DNA of 64,000 bases from Rhizoclosmatium globosum (Eukaryota; Chytridiomycota; Chytridiomycetes; Chytridiales; Chytriomycetaceae), in contig MCGO01000111.1 of assembly GCA_002104985.1 (NCBI GenBank), positions 62,001-126,000 on the forward strand, written 5' to 3'. This document shows, piece after piece, positions 1,426 through 26,905 of this stretch. The stretch's first letter is position 1, and every line of letters begins with the position of its first letter. Under the pieces are notes generated by a model that did not search any database, was not told where the DNA came from, and was given only the letters and a program-made list of their open reading frames with translations. Both the position numbers and the translations under genes were made by a program.

Positions 1426-4288
1426 CTACTTAATTCTTGGAGCCACGACACAAATCAATGGGAACCATCCCTTCTCCTTTGTACTGACATTCTCTCCGCT
1501 TGCCCACCCATCGCTGCTTACGTCCAGAACTTTGATTTCATGGCCAACACGGATAATTATCTCGTCTGGACGTTGAGGTGTGTAGTCTGCAATCGAGGTG
1601 CATGTCTTGTTGATTAAGGCAGTCAACGTAGTTGGTCCAGACGATTCCAAAAACGTGTTGTTCAATGAAGACGCGTTATTTTTCTCCATGTCAGCCTCGT
1701 TGGTTGTTGGGAACCGCATAAACATGGTCATGTTTCGATCAATTGGGTTAGTGGGGCTAGGTCCACTTCCAATGTAGTTGGAAGACGCTTGAAACTTGTA
1801 GCGAAACGATCAACTTCAGAGCTAAGCACAGTCATAGAACCATTTATAGAAGGATCAGCATCAACGGTTTCGAACGATGTTGGTAGGCGCGTAAAACTAG
1901 TTGGATCACGTCCAATTGTGATACTTGTCACGTTTTCAGGATCAAAACTCGACCCTGTTTGAAACGATGTTGGAAGACGCTGGAAACTTGTCGTGACACG
2001 GTCAACCTCGGAGCCGGGTGTTGTTACGGTGCCTCTGGCAGGAGAATCATTATCACCGGTTTCAAACGATGTTGGTAGGCGCATAAAACTAGTTTGATCA
2101 CGTCCAATTTGAGTCTGTTTCGCGTTATCAAGATCAAAGCTTAACCCTGTTTCAAACGATGTTGGAAGACGCTGGAAATTTGTAGTGAAACGGTCAACCT
2201 CGGAGCCGGATGTTGTTGCAGTGTCACTGACAGAAGAATCAATCTCAACTGTTTCAAACGATGTTGGCAGGCGCATAAAACTTGTAGCATCACGCGTGAC
2301 ATTTGCAGATGGGGTTGCCTCCTCTGAAGGGCTTGACCCCGTTTGAAATGACGTCGGTAGGCGCATAAAACTTGTGGCATCACGTCCAACATTTTTAGAC
2401 GGCGCATCATAAGAATTTATATCTGGTTCAAACGAGGTTGGCAGACGCATGAAACTAGTTGCATCACGCCCAATTGCGGCCGGCGCTGGACTGTCCGAAG
2501 TATTGAAGCTCGACCCTGTTTCAAACGATGTTGGAAGACGTTGGAATCTTGTAGTGAAACGGTCAACCTCGGAGCTGGAGGTAGCCATGGTGGTTGAAGC
2601 ATCAGCATCAAATGCTTCAAACGACGTTGGCAAGCGCATAAAACTCGTAGCATCACGTCCAACACTTGCAGACGACGTTGTACCATTTCCGTCAGATTCA
2701 AACGTTGTTGGCAACCGCAAGAAGTTGGTTTCAGCACGTAAAATCCCAGGTTTGCCAGTTCTGGTGCGATTCTCCTCGGGTTTGAACGATGTTGGAAGAC
2801 GCATATTGGTTGTAATCCCGCGGTTAGCTGTGGACTTCAATGGAATTCCGGACACTTCGGAATCCTTGGCTTCAGTCGTTGTTGGGATCCGCATGAAACT
2901 TGTGGTTGCACGATCTAAAATCCCGGTATCGGAGCCTGTGAGATTCGTATTTAATGTCGTAGTAGACGAATTTTGTTTAACTCACGTTGAACTCTGGGTT
3001 GAACAGGTTCAGCCTCGACAGTCGTTGAAAGCCGGAACAAGTTTGTGAAATAACGCCCAACTTGACCAACAGACGACTTAGGAGTATTGTAAGACTCATT
3101 ATCTTCGCTGGTAGTAGGTAAACGCAAATTCGTTGTGACAGCACGAGTCGTATTGTCGGAATCGAAAGTAGAAGGCATAACGGCAACTGCATTATTCATT
3201 CCTACCTCGTTTGTTGTTGGAAGTCGCATAAAGTCCGTTTCTGGGCGATTTACGTTTGAATTGATTGATGGAACTCGTCCCGCAATTTCCGAAACTGTGG
3301 ACGAGAACCTGACGGTACGACCGCGAGTGAGAGATTTGAATAGACTCACGGTTGATGCCTCTGTCATAATTGATGCTGTGTCTTGGTCGCTAGAGTCCAA
3401 CAATTCGGCTTCTTGGTGAGGTTCAAGGTGTAAGGTTTTGGTACGACGAGCTCTACCACGATAGATAAATATACCGACTGCAGCTGCGATTAAAGCAAAG
3501 ACAGCAACGATGGAACCCCCAATGATGGCAGGGAGATTTGAGGTTTGATGTGGACTGCTTTCGTTCGTTTGACTAACATTCTGGGCTGAACCGGGAACAG
3601 CTGCGTTGGCTCTCGATGAAGAGATTGAATCATTTAGAGTAGAGCAGCAAGAGGGAACGAATGCGTTGTGTTGGCAAAAGGCTGTCGCCGCAGCCATATC
3701 ACCGCCAAAACCACACGACGCCATGTCAGCTTCTGTACCACCAGCACATTGTCTAGCGTGCGCTCCTTCGAGGCACACGCTGTTGACGACGCGTGTTGAG
3801 ATCTCGCGAAGGTTTGAAACGGGGCATTGAGTGTTAACCACATTGACATTGGCACGAACGGCATCGCAGACATCCAGACACAATTCAAGTTGAGAATTGT
3901 TACTGTTGTCGTTGTTGTTGCATCCGATCGAGGTGATGTAGATGTCGCTGAGGCAGAGCAGCGACGCCGCAAAGCGAGTTGTTGAAGTTGCGCAACCAAT
4001 CGACGCGCCAATCGAGTTGTTCAAGTTGTTCACGTTGTTCACGTTGTTCAAGTGGCTGAGACGCGCGGCTTCCCACTGCGACAGCGTTGGTTTCGGCGGA
4101 AGTGAATAAAGAACCGCGATCGACGTCAAATTAAGATAGGCATTCGTCGTCAGTGGCGCACACAATGTCGGAAAGCTGCTAATTGGGATGCACTCGGTGG
4201 CGACCATGTTTTGGGCGAGCTTTGTTGGGGCCTTGGTACAATTCCGGTGAATGAAATGGGTGATGAAGGGATGATGTTCTGCCACCAT
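1426..4288 (-). CDS. Cys-rich single-pass SH3 protein with a 17-copy linear-motif array (paralogue B)
   Basis: Exon 1 (2986-4288) encodes the Cys-rich ectodomain, a transmembrane segment (AIIGGSIVAVFALIAAAVGI) and the start of the cytoplasmic region. A GT-AG intron at 2936-2985 (GTGAGT donor, CACAG acceptor, phase 1) joins it to exon 2. Exon 2 holds most of a tandem array of the motif F-x-R-L-P-T-[ST]-F-E and ends in an SH3 domain (RPDEIIIRVG, SDGWASGENV). The reading frame slips once near 1745-1747. Restoring one C to a CCC run on the coding strand would make the last repeat and the SH3 domain continuous; a GTGGAC..AG intron is a weaker alternative. The start may be the internal ATG at 4207 (MVATECIP), which aligns with paralogue A. 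Function unknown; a receptor or scaffold role is inferred. Confidence 0.65.
1690..3245 (-). repeat. Tandem array of about 17 F-x-R-L-P-T-[ST]-F-E motifs
   Basis: Within the cytoplasmic part of the preceding gene, units of about 27-37 codons repeat. Each has a core such as RDATSFMRLPTSFET. Two unit types alternate in part: GRDATSFMRLPTSFE and DRFTTxFQRLPTSFE. I count 3 divergent copies before the intron, 13 after it and 1 in the shifted frame. The core R-L-P-T-[ST] is retained in nearly every copy while the spacers diverge, so the array looks selected at the protein level rather than being simple slippage DNA. Confidence 0.85.
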
Positions 4289-7686: not shown

Positions 7687-9302
7687 ATGCAAATCGCACT
7701 TGCACTCTCTCTTGTGGCTCCAGCACTTGCAGCCTACCGATTTGACAAGAGCGTTGACCGAATTGCCGTTGCACAGCCGAATGCAGTTGAGTGTTCTGTG
7801 TTCTCTCTTAAGTTGTTCTGATGCTAACTTCCTTTGACTCCAACCAAAGGAGTGCGCTGTGATCCCCGCGCTGAGTTCGTGCTCGCCACTGTTTTCCGGG
7901 TCGTTTGTGAACTTGACGGCCGTTGGAGCGACGAGTGTGGCTGAGTGGGCGTCGCGGATTGGCGGTGTTGATGTCGCTGCGGGTCTTGGATGCAGTGGCG
8001 GTTCTTCAAAGGGCGTCCAGTTTGTGTCGACGTATCAGTGCGTGCGCGATGTTGTTGTTCTGTCGAAGGGCTGCAACAAACAATGTGTGTTACTGAGTTG
8101 TACCGAGTAGCAGTTGGCGATGTACTCACATCCACCTTCAACTAGTACCCTCGCCCGCCCTCTGCTCTGACACCTGCGATGCCCTCGGCGCCTCTCTCAA
8201 TGCCTACATTGGCGACACAGACAACTGCAAACCTGTCGCTTTCAACTCAGACGCCGCAAACGCTCGTGCCAAGGCTCTGAATGCCGCTGCAAACTGTAAA
8301 CAAACAGTCCTCGACTGGCAAAAACAGACTGGCTCTAGTGACTCCAAATGCACTGAGTCCATTACATTAGACTATGAAAGTTGTGGTACGTGAATTACCA
8401 ATCAAAGTCCCACGACTCAAACTCCACCTAGGTTTCGGAGGAAACTATGTTCAAGCGAAGGCATACTGTACTGCTGTCAAAAATTCTCCCTCCTGCTGTG
8501 ACGCTGTCAACAAGGCCTCCATCGCCACTTCAAACAACAAAACAGACACTTCTGCATCAAACAGAGTCTCAACTGGCTCTGCCACCAACTCAAACTCCAA
8601 CAACAAAATAATTGCGGGCTCCTCATTTGCCGCCTCCGACTCTTCAACTCCAACAACAGGAAACCCTGCCCCAACACAAGACCCCTCCTCTTCAAACTCT
8701 GACTCTGGTCTCTCCGTTGGCGCCAAAGTCGGAATTGCAATTGGTGTCGTTCTCCTCGTTGCCCTCATTGCATCCTGTTGGATCGTGTACACAAACAGAT
8801 TCAACATCTTCCCATCCAACCACCCTGTCCTTAAATTCCTTGGTGATGGTGGTCGCCCTTCCTACGTCAAGAGAGGCGCTTCAAGTCAGTACAGGAATTC
8901 TGTTATTAATCTTCAAGGTGGTTCTTCGTCTTCAACTACATTGACGACAACTACCGTGGAGAGAACCTACGTGCGTATTCCGGATGAAGCTAGTACTGGA
9001 GTCGCCATTAAAGGGGAACATGTTGTCAAAATTGAGTATGTTGCGTCTCTACCTGATGGTGAGTAAAGTCTTAAGCGTATATCGTTGTCGAGCGAAGCGA
9101 GAAGCTTTAGTAAATTATAGATTTTGAATCTATCCCAGCCATGCACTAACTTGACACTTCGCTAGAACTGTCGGTCAAGATTGGTGACCTGCTTACAATC
9201 ACAGAAGCATATGACGATGGATGGGCAAAAGGAAGGAAGAGCAATGGTACAGAAGGGTTATTCCCTCTCTCCTGTGTGGGTATTGATACACCTGTTGCTT
9301 AA
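7687..9302 (+). CDS. Secreted-start Cys-rich single-pass SH3 protein (paralogue C)
   Basis: The ATG at 7687 opens a clear signal peptide (MQIALALSLVAPALAA). Exons are joined over introns at about 7786-7849, 8085-8145, 8386-8431 and 9059-9165, all GT-AG. The ectodomain repeats the family pattern (ALCSDTCDALGASLNAYIGD, SCGFGGNYVQAKAYC, SCCDAVNKAS). A transmembrane segment follows (VGIAIGVVLLVALIASCWIV). The last exon completes a C-terminal SH3 domain (LSVKIGDLLTITEAYDDGWA, TEGLFPLSCVGI). This copy has the cleanest gene structure of the three and shows that the family is exported with the Cys-rich part outside and the SH3 inside. Ligands and pathway are unknown. Confidence 0.75.
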
Positions 9303-10445
9303 AGTATCCATCCATTCGTTTATTATCGCATCGCTTGGCGTGGTCTACTTCGCCTCTCGCCCTCTCCTTTTTTGTCTGTTGTTTTGTACTTTGAATGAAG
9401 CTTATGTGTCAATTTGGCTTGATGAGCAATCCTCTCTTTCAAAAACACGCTTCTACTTCATATACATAATTCGAAAGCGTGATTTTCATTACGTCAATGC
9501 ATTTCAAAAAATTCTGGAACAAAGGGAATCAAAAATGAGAATACCCTGCAGACACTTTTCAATCAAGCGCTGATATCTCGGTACGTCATAGAGCCACTCC
9601 ATGTTTCGCTATCGTCTCTTGTTTCTAACGCGCTTCTGTTTGACGGTTTCGTTTAGAAGTTTTAAAGTGATCGCCTCCACTTGCTCATCAATATGTACGT
9701 AGTTGACACAGATTCTTATCCCCGGACCCTCTTCCTGTCTCTTATCGCACACTTCTGATTCCCTTATTAATCTGTACTCTATCATAGCTACAACGCCGTC
9801 ACGAACGTATGATCTGTACGCGTCCATTCATCCAAATTGTCAACTTGTAAATCTCACCTGCATAGCAACTTGCTCCTTCTTCTCGACCGTCGTGTCAACA
9901 CATTTCTTTCTTTATCACATGTTCCGCCTTTGTTTCAGGGGTCCTTTGACTCCGAAAAACGTGGCGAGTTGAGATTCCCTTGAAAAAGGAACTCAATCCC
10001 CCCTTTCAGTTATGGCTACGCTTGTAGTTGTGTTGTTCTCATGTATGGGGTATCATTGATTGTATATCAACTTTCTTTTCATTATATACGTTGTTTGGAA
10101 TGATGGGGTTATATGCAAGGGCTTCTGTATCTCATTTTTATACCACCATTTGTCGATGCGATCCATGGTTCCAAAAGGGAGCTAATGTAGACGTTGGTGA
10201 GAGTTCAGCTGGGGAAAAGTCGGTTTCATCCGATATTGAACTGGTATCTTCAAATCCTTTAGATTGAAGTGGATTTTTTCTATTCGTAGTCGTTGTTCGT
10301 TGACACGGTTACTTCCTGAGGCTGTTCGGTTTAGGAAGAAAGCTACCCTTCAGTTCGTACGGTTGTATGGTTAACAATTATATGTTTTTGGATAATAAAT
10401 GTGGATTTAATCTCATAAATCAATAATTTTTGTGGTTCCTCCTCG
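9303..10445 (+). other. No gene resolved; scattered hydrophobic fragments
   Basis: Short plus-strand frames contain hydrophobic runs, for example near 9840-9940 and 10028-10110, and a polar tail ending at 10267 (SVSSDIELVSSNPLD). They do not join into a convincing splice model. This could be a decayed or intron-rich multi-pass membrane gene. Nothing else is recognised. Confidence 0.3.
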
Positions 10446-23292: not shown

Positions 23293-24087
23293 ATTTGTCG
23301 TTACGAAAACTAAACAATTGGTTGACCAATAAAGACTTGTAATCACTGCAACTTCCATCTCCAAACTGAAAAGGTTCCAAAAAACTATCATGGAAATACC
23401 ATCGTTTCGATACAAGACATTGCCGATCCGTACGGACCGTGAGTCCAAGTACATGACGGTTCTCAACGAGATCCTGATCAAGCCAGACTGGTGGATCAAG
23501 CTCAAGGACGAGGCGATCGTCGCCAAGTGGAAGGATGAAGTCCGCGGTGGAATCACTGCGTTGCTGGCGGATGAAGGTAATGCATCGGAAGGCGAGGCAG
23601 AGGAGAATGTGAGGGCGGAAGCTGGCGTTGCTGCTGGTGGGGAAGTTTTGCTTTGACGGCTGACGAATCAGCTGTTGACGAAGGCGACGACAGTCAGTGG
23701 GAGGATGTCAATGAACGCAAGCTTGTCGAGCATGTCACAGATAAGGAATTCGTGAATCAAGTGGTCGACTTTCTGTTCCAGGTTTGTTGATTTGACGGTT
23801 GCTGTTGCTTGCTTTGCCTGACTGCCCCCCAACCCACCCTCAACACCATCCAGGAGCTTCATTACCTTGCTGCCAATTGTTTGATCAGCCACAAGAACGG
23901 CGGTTTGATTACACCGACTTCCAGCCACGGTGTGTTCATCTCCGATTCTGTGGTTCCAATCGAAACAGTCTCTCGCCTGACGAAATCAGCCGATGCGGTT
24001 GAAGCTGATTCGTTGGAAAAGAACAAATGGCACGAAGGGTCTGATGGGAAAGTCCTCGACTTGATCCATCCATCCGATTACTGCTTG

Positions 24088-25580
24088 TGTTACAAGCTTC
24101 GAATAAACAAGCGACTATCGATATTACCGAGTCGAATAATTCTCACCTTGTTTTGATGGGTGCGTGCTCAGGCGCGTGTTCATCTAATTTGGACCGTACG
24201 TAAGGGATAATGGGAAATTGTCGGGATTTTCTTCTTTGTTGCTTTTCCCGTTTTCCCCTTTCTTTTTTTTCCTTCTTCGAAGTTATTGCAGTTTCTTATC
24301 TTAAGCGTTGCGCTGCTCTTAATTAGGTGGAGTGTTGTTCATTGGGTTCTTGTTTCCTTATCGGCGTTTTTCTTATTCGTTGTGATCCTCAGGTTTCTCC
24401 CTCTCATTCAATACACCGCTGCTCCGAGTTTAAGTTCGCTGACTCGACTAAAAGGTGTGATTTTGAGGGTTCATTATGAAACTGATGGACTGGGAACGTT
24501 AGGTGTTTATTGATTTGAGTTGCCGTTGGAAACAAATTGGACTGAACGCGTTATACCTTATTAAGGTGGAGTTTTGGCGGTCTTATACTCTTATCAGTTT
24601 CTTATCTTTCTTTATACCTTTGGTTTTCCAGGTTCTACACTCTCTCCCATTTACTGCTCCCCTTTACACGTTGTTAACGTCAAACTTCGTGCACAAAAGG
24701 TATGAGACAGTGAGAGTGTTGAACATCTCTGATTGGTGGAGTGTCACTAGGTTAGAAGCTTCGGCTTGTTATATTATTGCTCCCCTCTCAACTTACACAA
24801 ACACAATCAAACCAAAAGGTATTTTCGTTTAATAAATTAGGAAGTTATTGCAGTTTCTTATCTTAAGCGTTGCGCTGCTCTTAATTAGGTTTCTCCCTCT
24901 CATTCAATACACCACTGCTCCGAGTTTAAGTTCGCTGACTCGACTAAAAGGTGTTTATTGATTTGAGTTGCCGTTGGAAACAAATTGGACTGAACGCGTT
25001 ATACCTTATTAAGGTTCTACACTCTCTCCCATTTACTGCTCCCCTTTACACGTTGTTAACGTCAAACTTCGTGCACAAAAGGTTAGAAGCTTCGGCTTGT
25101 TATATTATTGCTCCCCTCTCAACTTACACAAACACAATCAAACCAAAAGGTTTCTCCCTCTCATTCAATACACCACTGCTCCGAGTTTAAGTTCGCTGAC
25201 TCGACTAAAAGGTTCTACACTCTCTCCCATTTACTGCTCCCCTTTACACGTTGTTAACGTCAAACTTCGTGCACAAAAGGTTTCTCCCTCTCATTCAATA
25301 CACCGCTGCTCCGAGTTTAAGTTCGCTGACTCGACTAAAAGGTTTCTCCCTCTCATTCAATACACCGCTGCTCCGAGTTTAAGTTCGCTGACTCGACTAA
25401 AAGAATTAGGAACGCCAACACATCATTGCCCATCTTAACCCATTGCTAGTCGTCATACTACCATTGGGAACAATAGAAATCGAATCTATTTTTATTATAT
25501 ACAAGCATCAACGGCTACAGTTGACAAGTTAAATTTATTATTTACATCCATCTATTCGTACTCGTTGGTTGCTTGTTACA
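24088..25580 (+). mobile_element. Putative non-autonomous insertion with short terminal inverted repeats and CTTG duplication
   Basis: Comparison with three uninterrupted paralogues places the insertion exactly between TACTGCTTG and GTCTATGG. The left end is TGTTACAAGC; the right end GCTTGTTACA is its inverted repeat with 1 mismatch in 10. CTTG occurs immediately outside both ends (24084-24087 and 25581-25584) and fits a 4-bp target-site duplication. No transposase-like frame is inside. The interior is a unique left arm, the modular repeat array, and a unique right arm. The family is not recognised. Confidence 0.55.
24279..25403 (+). repeat. Hierarchical modular array of GT...AG units (1-10 / 1-3-5-7-9 / 3-7 / 3 / 3)
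   Basis: Apart from module 1, which starts GAAG, every module starts with GT, and all end with AG, so junctions read AG|GT. Modules: 1 (24279-24326), 2 (24327-24392), 3 (24393-24454), 4 (24455-24502), 5 (24503-24565), 6 (24566-24631), 7 (24632-24699), 8 (24700-24750), 9 (24751-24818), 10 (24819-24840). Second pass: 1 (24841-24888), 3 (24889-24950), 5 (24951-25013), 7 (25014-25081), 9 (25082-25149). Third pass: 3 (25150-25211), 7 (25212-25279). Then 3 (25280-25341) and 3 (25342-25403). Copies of each module are essentially identical; module 3 differs at one site (CACCGCTG or CACCACTG). Confidence 0.95.
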
Positions 25581-26905
25581 CTTGGTCTATGGCCGTTCCC
25601 TCCAAAGAGACAACATTTCGCAGCCTTTTGGATACAAGCCATTTAAATACGCGGGGCCAAAGTATGGCGATGTTTCCCAAAAGTTCCAATGGCTTCCCTC
25701 TGAATTCAAGGTGAAGGACGACGGCAGCGTCGAGATCCGTTCATACATCAACAACTTGAACTGTCGTCAGCACCCAGAACTGCAGGAATCAATCAGATCT
25801 GTATTTGAAATTATGGTTCCCATGTTTGAGCTGGCACTCGGGTCTTTGGAGACGAAACCTGACCGCCGAATTGAAGCTTCTATGGATAACAATGACTACC
25901 AGCAGGATCAGTGGGAATGGCAAATAGATGAATTCCTCCGTCATAAGTATGGAAAGGATGTCAATCTGAGAAATGGGAGGTTGCGCGACGAAGCCCGTAG
26001 CAGTGACGAATTCGACGAGTTCCAAGATGACTTGTGGGAGAGAATGGCGGATCGTCCAGTGAATGTTCCAGGTTTGCCAAAGACGTTTCAAGCTCCTACT
26101 GACTCTGAGGTTCACCGGTTCAACCTCGCTGGTCGAAACCTTCAAGTTATTGTCAAAATGGCAAGCATTCATTTGACTCCAGAGAAGCCATCATTCACTG
26201 GAGGAAGCTGGCACTTGGAAGGAATGGAAAATGAAGCTATCGCGGCAACAGGAATCTTGTACTACGCGATGGACAACATCACGTCATCCCGTTTGACTTT
26301 CCGAAGCGTGTACGAAGCAGACGAGGGTGGTGCCTTCTCTTACGAACAGAGTGACTTTGCTGGTCTCGAGAAAGTCTTCAACATCGAAAACGAGATTTCC
26401 AACAATGCTCAAGTGTGTGGTCAAATTGAAGCTCGTGAGAATCGCTGCGTTGTGTTTCCAAACTACCTCCACCACAAAGTCGAGGACTTTGAGCTGCAAG
26501 ACAAGACGCATCCAGGACATCGTAAGATTCTGGCGTTCTTTGTGGTCCATCCGGACTTCGAAGTTACTTCTACTGCTGATGTAGGAATGCAACAGGTTGA
26601 TTGGGCTGCAGAGGAGTTGTCTGGTATTTGTGGATTCGGAAGCAAGTTGCCCATCGAAATTGTGAGACAGATTGCTCTTGCCACTGGTGCAGTTCTGACA
26701 GAAAGGGAGGCTATTGAGGTCGCCCATCAAGTGATGGAGGAGAGAAAGAATACTCCAGAAGACGCGTACGCTAATATTCAACAGATTTATCTTTGCGAGC
26801 ACTGATAGTTTTCTTCAAATAAATGCTCGATGTTGCAGTAAACATAGTTTATTTTCTATTAACACAATGAATAAATAATAAGCCCCAGAACACGAGAACA
26901 CTGAT

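What the first reader, a model, noticed from the sequence alone, without database searches (positions are those of the whole stretch)
24279..25403. Self-similar array in which successive passes keep every second module
Seen directly: GT...AG modules occur in the order 1-2-3-4-5-6-7-8-9-10, then 1-3-5-7-9, then 3-7, then 3, 3. Each pass is the previous one with alternate modules gone, and all joins are AG|GT. Module 3 carries A at one site in passes two and three but G in pass one and the last two copies, so pass three derives from pass two. Unequal crossing-over or slippage does not predict exact alternation. Two ideas fit. One is repeated removal of intron-like modules from RNA followed by reverse transcription and insertion next to the parent; since exons here also begin GT and end AG, splicing recreates new donor/acceptor pairs each round. 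The other is the reverse direction, with new modules inserted at every AG|GT junction each time the unit duplicates. Against simple spliceosomal removal: module 10 is only 22 nt and branch sites are weak.
Basis: partly seen in the sequence, partly recalled or inferred. Interest (0 to 1): 0.92.

Follow-up and report, generated by a model that had tools for sequence, protein, structure and literature searches.

The report
LTR that stores its spliced leader
A jumping element in what is likely a fungus carries, in its end repeats, ten intron-like blocks followed by exactly what is left when every second block of the whole stretch is cut out, an order likely renewed at each jump because the element's RNA would be spliced and then copied back into DNA.

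Summary
It is not a local array. It lies inside a 1,493-bp solo LTR (24088-25580, TG..CA ends, 4-bp target duplication CTTG) inserted in a DUF4246 gene; a near-identical allele has the empty site. The same order occurs at three more insertion sites of a Ty3-like LTR retrotransposon. The order has a simple law. Call the first ten modules A and the other nine Q. If module 10 and the following module 1 count as one 70-nt GT..AG unit, removing every second unit from A+Q returns Q: 563 nt, 0 mismatches in three of five LTR copies tested, 2 in the window, 2 in C19. Q is a fixed point of 'splice the leader, copy it back', reached in 3-4 rounds from all five short starts tried. All 17 AGGT sites of the LTR are module boundaries. 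Variants of modules 3 and 5 are mostly shared between A and Q. Best reading: the leader is spliced, its strong-stop cDNA becomes Q, and A is renewed from the unspliced 3' end. Splicing is inferred; no RNA data were available.

The parts
24084..24087 (.). target-site duplication CTTG, left copy
   Evidence: single copy in the empty allele L027
24088..25580 (+). solo LTR, 1,493 bp, TGTTACAAGC...GCTTGTTACA
   Evidence: related LTRs on C146, C347, C411, C19
24088..24278 (+). U3 part upstream of the array
   Evidence: 13 genome matches to 24098-24278, the window itself included
24279..24840 (+). A block: modules 1-10 (inferred: transcribed leader, renewed from the unspliced 3' end of the RNA)
24279..24326 (+). 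module 1, exon role; its start is the inferred cap site; the only module that does not begin with GT
   Evidence: the copy at 24841 starts at the same base
24327..24392 (+). module 2, GT..AG, intron role, 66 nt
24393..24454 (+). module 3, exon role, 62 nt
24455..24502 (+). module 4, GT..AG, intron role, 48 nt
24503..24565 (+). module 5, exon role, 63 nt
24566..24631 (+). module 6, GT..AG, intron role, 66 nt
24632..24699 (+). module 7, exon role, 68 nt
24700..24750 (+). module 8, GT..AG, intron role, 51 nt
24751..24818 (+). module 9, exon role, 68 nt
24819..24888 (+). module 10 (24819-24840) plus second module 1 (24841-24888): one 70-nt GT..AG unit, intron role; the second module 1 is also the inferred R / landing site
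24831..24836 (+). AATAAA, candidate poly(A) signal that starts 10 nt before the second module 1
   Evidence: role inferred
24841..25403 (+). Q block: 1-3-5-7-9-3-7-3-3, 563 nt, equal to the array with every second unit removed (2 mismatches here)
24889..24950 (+). Q module 3 (exon role), carries A at site 26
24951..25013 (+). Q module 5, GT..AG, intron role in Q context
25014..25081 (+). Q module 7, exon role
25082..25149 (+). Q module 9, GT..AG, intron role in Q context
25150..25211 (+). Q module 3 (exon role), A at site 26
25212..25279 (+). Q module 7, GT..AG, intron role in Q context
25280..25341 (+). Q module 3 (exon role), G at site 26
25342..25403 (+). Q module 3, intron role in Q context, G at site 26
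25404..25580 (+). tail (rest of the U5 side), begins AATTAGGAACGCC
   Evidence: 13 genome matches to 25404-25579, the window itself included and one LTR counted in two pieces
25581..25584 (.). target-site duplication CTTG, right copy
23854..24087 (+). DUF4246 gene, exon 5' of the insertion (start after an intron read by eye at 23782-23853)
   Evidence: PF14033 profile 9-84 in 23791-24087
25581..26805 (+). DUF4246 gene, part 3' of the insertion
   Evidence: PF14033 profile 115-401 in 25573-26805

Best explanation
The array is the core of a solo LTR of a Ty3-like retrotransposon whose right half Q (1-3-5-7-9-3-7-3-3) equals the whole array with every second unit removed, most likely because Q is re-made at each retrotransposition as the cDNA of the element's own spliced RNA leader. 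Inferred cycle. (1) Transcription starts at the first module 1, so the 5' leader of the RNA is A+Q+tail. (2) The leader is spliced; units 2, 4, 6, 8, 10+1, and then 5, 9, 7, 3 of Q leave, giving 1-3-5-7-9-3-7-3-3-tail. (3) Minus strong-stop cDNA of this leader transfers to the 3' end of the RNA, which ends in or after the second module 1; that copy is its matching landing site. (4) Synthesis runs on through unspliced A and U3. The new LTR is U3 + A (from the 3' end) + Q + tail (from the spliced 5' end). Each round Q becomes splice(A+Q), which converges to the observed order and then stays there. A likely side effect is that Q, as the landing site, shields the introns of A from the loss that copying of spliced RNA would cause. 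The order and the self-consistency are shown; splicing, cap site, poly(A) site and strand transfer are inferred.
For: Self-consistency: splice(A+Q)=Q by symbol, and by sequence over 563 nt in five copies tested: 0 mismatches in C146_333k, C146_343k, C347_9k4; 2 in the window; 2 in C19, whose interrupted first module was left out. Only 1 of 840 orders of the same nine modules is self-consistent, and only fusion 10+1 of 18 works. Of 131,072 keep/remove patterns 9 return Q and one of these has all removed stretches under 100 nt. The map reaches the observed order from all five short starts tried, in 3-4 rounds. Splice anatomy: 9 of 9 removed units are GT..AG, 48-70 nt; four host introns read by eye are 57-72 nt; all 17 AGGT of the LTR are module boundaries; module 1, the only one that never begins an intron in the model, is the only one that does not begin with GT. 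Shared variants: module 3 site 26 is G in all five copies of both C146 LTRs and A in every copy read on C347, C411, C19; module 5 site 33 is T in both A and Q of C19 and A in both of the other six copies where both were aligned. LTR context: ends, 4-bp duplications, two-LTR elements, RNase H and integrase domains, empty allele. C364 holds an inverted 1-3-tail block with module 2 precisely gone, starting within a few bases of the inferred cap site.
Against: No RNA evidence. Several Q donors are weak (GTTAGA, GTTCTA, GTTTCT). The A block must stay unspliced at the 3' end although introns 2, 4, 6, 8 are complete there; no call explains this. The same module must act as exon in one place and intron in another. 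The window's pattern at module 3 (G, then A, A, G, G) needs recombination between G- and A-type elements. C411_122k has another order (1-2-3-4-5-7-9-3-7-3-3), C411_130k has a damaged Q and C347_1k6 many small differences; these three were not put to the 563-nt test. C19 has a variant in only one of its five module 3 copies. Even modules are absent from Q, so their variants cannot test the model. No primer tRNA was found for the PBS-like stretch. From 4 of 6 random starts the map ends with one extra last module, so the final module also depends on the start.
Confidence: 0.8

Rival explanations
1. DNA-level tandem duplication, deletion and gene conversion inside the LTR made the passes, without splicing.
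For: C411_122k looks like a join between the module 5 of A and the module 5 of Q, so homologous joins between modules do occur; concerted evolution would also spread variants between copies.
Against: It does not predict exact alternation, the parity flip at 10+1, or the match of Q with the spliced whole over 563 nt.
Confidence: 0.07
2. Reverse transcriptase jumped between AGGT microhomologies without any spliceosome.
For: The joins inside Q that differ from A lie at shared AGGT, so the breakpoint is ambiguous by up to 4 nt (sequence).
Against: Jumps among 17 equal AGGT sites would not skip exactly one unit each time; one of 131,072 patterns does so. All removed units also have intron size.
Confidence: 0.08
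3. One reading: processed copies inserted beside the parent in several separate events, or new modules inserted at each AG|GT as the unit duplicates.
For: The order alone allows both.
Against: The six complete copies share one order inside one LTR, and a single repeated step explains all passes including the parity flip.
Confidence: 0.04
4. Assembly artefact or collapsed repeat.
For: C347 is a 14-kb contig, and one of its LTRs has many small differences in Q.
Against: The same order at four sites with different target duplications, and an allele with a clean empty site.
Confidence: 0.01

Closest known systems
Ty3-like LTR retrotransposons and their reverse transcription (PMC5371799, passages seen)
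   Same: TG..CA LTRs, target duplications, RNase H and integrase domains; minus strong-stop synthesis and minus-strand transfer are the standard steps used here.
   Different: The LTR holds a chain of intron-like modules and a second half that equals its own array with every second unit removed.
LTR retrotransposons with introns (Ogre, EVADE, BARE1; PMC12786077, passages seen)
   Same: Introns in the RNA of LTR elements that persist in the genomic copies.
   Different: The passages seen tie EVADE and BARE1 splicing to a short gag RNA and mention no intron in an LTR; here the modules lie in the LTR, so the leader would be copied back into the LTR each round.
Intron loss by reverse transcription (TyH3 intron test in PMC12786077; mini-Tnt1 in PMC2923131; passages seen)
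   Same: Spliced RNA is copied into DNA and introns vanish precisely; the mini-Tnt1 authors infer that more than one RNA serves as template.
   Different: Here the loss would act only on Q, while A keeps the introns, so the loss is repeated and settles at a fixed point.
Retroviruses with the main splice donor in R (HTLV, BLV, foamy viruses; recalled, no call)
   Same: Splicing that involves the repeated end of the RNA.
   Different: One donor; no chain of alternating units and no stored spliced copy known to me.
Introners and stwintrons (recalled, no call)
   Same: Intron units that multiply or nest.
   Different: Introners are copies of one sequence in many genes; here ten different modules sit in one LTR.

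Membership tests
Ty3/gypsy LTR retrotransposon | Two similar LTRs around an internal pol region | tested here: met
   C146 (1 mismatch in 1,421 aligned bases and 2 gap positions, over the part up to an insertion in one LTR's tail), C347 (11 in 1,462, 30 gap positions; noisy contig); C411. The window copy itself is a solo LTR
Ty3/gypsy LTR retrotransposon | TG..CA ends and short target duplication | tested here: met
   4-bp duplications CTTG, GAGC, CATG, CCAG at C15, C146, C347, C19; the C411 copy has none
Ty3/gypsy LTR retrotransposon | RNase H followed by integrase | tested here: met
   PF17919 E 8.1e-8 and PF17921 E 5.4e-18 in one 722-aa frame
Ty3/gypsy LTR retrotransposon | Reverse transcriptase palm domain | tested here: inconclusive
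   No PF00078 in the six open frames given, of 12 listed; all 7 protein relatives found carry it
Ty3/gypsy LTR retrotransposon | Primer binding site matching a host tRNA | tested here: inconclusive
   TGGCGAGCGTACC two bases after the 5' LTR; four pattern hits for a matching tRNA, and the one put to ARAGORN is no tRNA
Spliceosomal introns | GT..AG ends of each removed unit | tested here: met
   9 of 9 in each of five copies
Spliceosomal introns | Length class of the host's introns | tested here: met
   48-70 nt against four host introns of 57, 61, 62, 72 nt, read by eye; a small sample
Spliceosomal introns | Removal from RNA | not testable with these tools
   No RNA reads for this genome; indirect only (Q in the LTRs, 1-3-tail in C364)
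Introner elements | Similar sequence inserted as introns in many genes | tested here: not met
   Modules differ from one another (highest Z among window modules 2.6); matches to the A block lie in this LTR family and its diverged relatives, apart from one short match on C73 (the search scores only the best candidates)

The most novel reading that the evidence does not exclude
An LTR whose U5 side is the inherited cDNA of its own spliced leader: the array is the fixed point of splicing plus reverse transcription, the stored copy is the landing pad that lets introns survive inside an LTR, and the chain A3 to Q2 to Q6 to Q8 to Q9 is a shift register that records module 3 over the last four rounds of retrotransposition.
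Probability: 0.66. Interest if true: 0.92.

Novelty: new variant of a known kind. Interest (0 to 1): 0.84.

Why it matters
Introns inside the repeated end of an RNA-copied element should be lost as soon as spliced RNA is copied. This LTR suggests a way to keep them: store the spliced form next to the unspliced one, so that the cDNA lands on its own image. It would be a case in which a genome carries the exact output of a splicing rule applied to itself, so splicing choices and past rounds could be read from DNA alone. It also offers a sharp test of how introns are chosen when nearly every boundary is both donor and acceptor.

Full report
What is there. Positions 24279-25403 hold 19 modules: 1-10, then 1-3-5-7-9, then 3-7, then 3, then 3. 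Repeat copies are identical except for module 3 site 26. The LTR holds 17 AGGT tetramers, all at module boundaries; the boundaries 10|1 and 3|tail lack it. Across the first ten modules 9 AGGT are seen against a mean of 2.0 in 2,000 base shuffles, maximum 8.

Where it sits. The window is part of contig C15 of a 56.9-Mb genome in 420 contigs. Module 3 gives 42 matches there on eight contigs; the clusters on C15, C146 and C19 have the spacing 496, 261, 130, 62, and one on C347 differs from it by one base. C146, C347 and C411 each have two clusters, 7.6-9.3 kb apart. The segment 24088-25580 begins TGTTACAAGC, ends GCTTGTTACA and is flanked by CTTG on both sides. It splits a DUF4246 gene (PF14033 profile 9-84 on the left, 115-401 on the right). 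A near-identical stretch on C46, likely the other haplotype, lacks the insertion and has one CTTG. So the window carries a solo LTR, likely present in one haplotype and absent in the other. The full elements have RNase H and integrase domains, and the seven relatives found by protein search also carry reverse transcriptase domains. Target duplications are 4 bp: CTTG (C15), GAGC (C146), CATG (C347), CCAG (C19). C411 shares its 5' flank with C347 (96.96% over 1,677 aligned bases) but has no matching duplication, so these two are not counted as independent. The two C146 LTRs differ at 1 of 1,421 aligned bases with 2 gap positions, over the part up to an insertion in one tail; the two C347 LTRs at 11 of 1,462 with 30 gap positions.

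All copies. Fifteen sequences were annotated. Complete order in 6: window, C146 (two), C347 (two, one with many small differences), C19 (with a 3.2-kb insertion inside module 1). C411_130k has the order with part of Q (7-9-3-7) damaged. C411_122k reads 1-2-3-4-5-7-9-3-7-3-3-tail. C380 and C46 read 1-2-3-tail and share a 3' flank. C146:304k and C205 read 1-2-(7-like)-tail and share flanks. C364 reads 1-2-3-4-5-6 (last module partial) followed by an inverted 1-3-tail. C374 keeps U3 and most of module 1. C73 has a short 3-4 match.

The law. Write the array as A (1-10) plus Q (1-3-5-7-9-3-7-3-3). Take 10 and the following 1 as one unit of 70 nt that begins GT and ends AG. The array then has 18 units. 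Keep units 1, 3, 5 and so on, up to 17: the result is 1-3-5-7-9-3-7-3-3, which is Q. By sequence this was tested on five of the eight array-bearing copies: 563 nt with 0 mismatches in C146_333k, C146_343k and C347_9k4, and 2 each in the window and C19 (for C19 the interrupted first module was left out). C347_1k6 and the two C411 copies, with damaged or other orders, were not tested. The 10+1 unit shifts the parity, which is why the third pass keeps the even members of the second. Controls: without fusion the result differs; of 18 adjacent fusions only 10+1 works; of 840 orders of the same nine modules with 1 first, one is self-consistent; of lengths 1-12 only 9 and 10 can be self-consistent. 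Of 131,072 keep/remove patterns 9 return Q; eight of these contain a removed stretch of 130-562 nt, and one has only removed stretches of 48-70 nt. Each of modules 2-10 begins with GT and in the model each begins an intron somewhere; module 1 begins with GA and in the model never does.

How it arises. Repeat 'Q becomes splice(A+Q)'. From tail only, 1-2-3-tail and 7-tail the observed Q is reached in 4 rounds, from 1-3-tail and 1-3-5-7-9-tail in 3; of 6 random starts of up to 31 modules 2 reach it and 4 reach it with one extra last module. Reverse transcription of LTR elements takes the U3 side of the new LTR from the 3' end of the RNA and the U5 side from the 5' end (established knowledge, recalled; strong-stop and transfer steps in PMC5371799, passages seen). 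If the 5' leader is spliced and the 3' end is not, this is exactly the map above. Q starts at the first base of module 1, where likeness to the U3 border ends, as a cDNA that ran to the cap would. An AATAAA starts 10 nt before the second module 1, so an RNA end in or after that module is likely. The second module 1 would then play R, and Q would be the perfect landing site for spliced strong-stop cDNA. These steps are inferred.

Variants. The model says that odd modules of A feed Q (module 3: A3 to Q2 to Q6 to Q8 to Q9; module 7: A7 to Q4 to Q7; module 5: A5 to Q3). Module 3 site 26 is A in C380, in C46, in one of the two C364 copies (the inverted one was not read by the pattern), in all five copies of C19 and of both C347 LTRs, and in the four copies read in each C411 LTR. 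It is G in all five copies of both C146 LTRs. Module 5 site 33 is T in A and Q of C19 and in the one module 5 of C364, and A in A and Q of the window, both C146, both C347 and C411_130k. Q has no even modules, so variants there test nothing. The window reads G in A and then A, A, G, G along the chain; as a register this says that module 3 of A was A, A, G, G in the last four rounds, which needs exchange between G- and A-type elements. Such exchange is visible anyway: at most variable sites the window's U3 is like C19, and its A block is like C146 at module 3 and 8 sites. Gene conversion could also share variants. Against the model: one C19 variant is in a single module 3 copy, which could be a change after insertion.

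Host. Four host introns read by eye in two genes are 57, 61, 62 and 72 nt, GT..AG, the size of the modules.

Limits. There is no RNA. Donors in Q are weak. Why the 3' copy of A would stay unspliced is not explained by any search; selection for LTRs that keep A is one possibility. The origin of A and the age order of short and long LTRs are open. Literature: ten searches of an open-licence library, with passages read in six papers, gave introns in LTR elements and intron loss by reverse transcription, but nothing like this array. On checking, the even-module variants were dropped as evidence because they are no test; the confidence was lowered from 0.82 to 0.80 and the novel case from 0.68 to 0.66 for that reason.

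Noticed in passing
L023:2256-3725 (G000:C347): An open frame with an endonuclease/exonuclease/phosphatase domain (PF03372, E 1.3e-16) lies upstream of the RNase H/integrase frame of this LTR element, which seems an unusual partner.
   Followed up: partly
L012 (G000:C411, LTR near 121580-122613): LTR with order 1-2-3-4-5-7-9-3-7-3-3-tail, as if the module 5 of A had been joined to the module 5 of Q.
   Followed up: partly
L019 (G000:C364:56826-57486): Rearranged LTR in which modules 1-6 are followed by an inverted, precisely spliced 1-3-tail block.
   Followed up: partly
window 23333-26805 and C46:144993-145593: DUF4246 gene split by the solo LTR on C15 and without it on C46; further DUF4246-like DNA matches lie on C15 and C46.
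   Followed up: partly
G000 (for example C15/C46, C126/C2, C112/C300): Many matches come in near-identical contig pairs, so the assembly probably holds both haplotypes.
   Followed up: no
L015 (G000:C19:77300-82800) and L009 (G000:C146:340400-343300): A 3.2-kb insertion sits inside module 1 of the C19 LTR; an insertion of about 0.4 kb lies in the tail of one C146 LTR.
   Followed up: no
window 1777-2294: 192-bp tandem repeat, 2.7 copies.
   Followed up: no
L039 (G000:C387:43500-53400), 8947-9685: A repeat with a period of about 243 bp, over 99% identical, near another integrase-like match.
   Followed up: no
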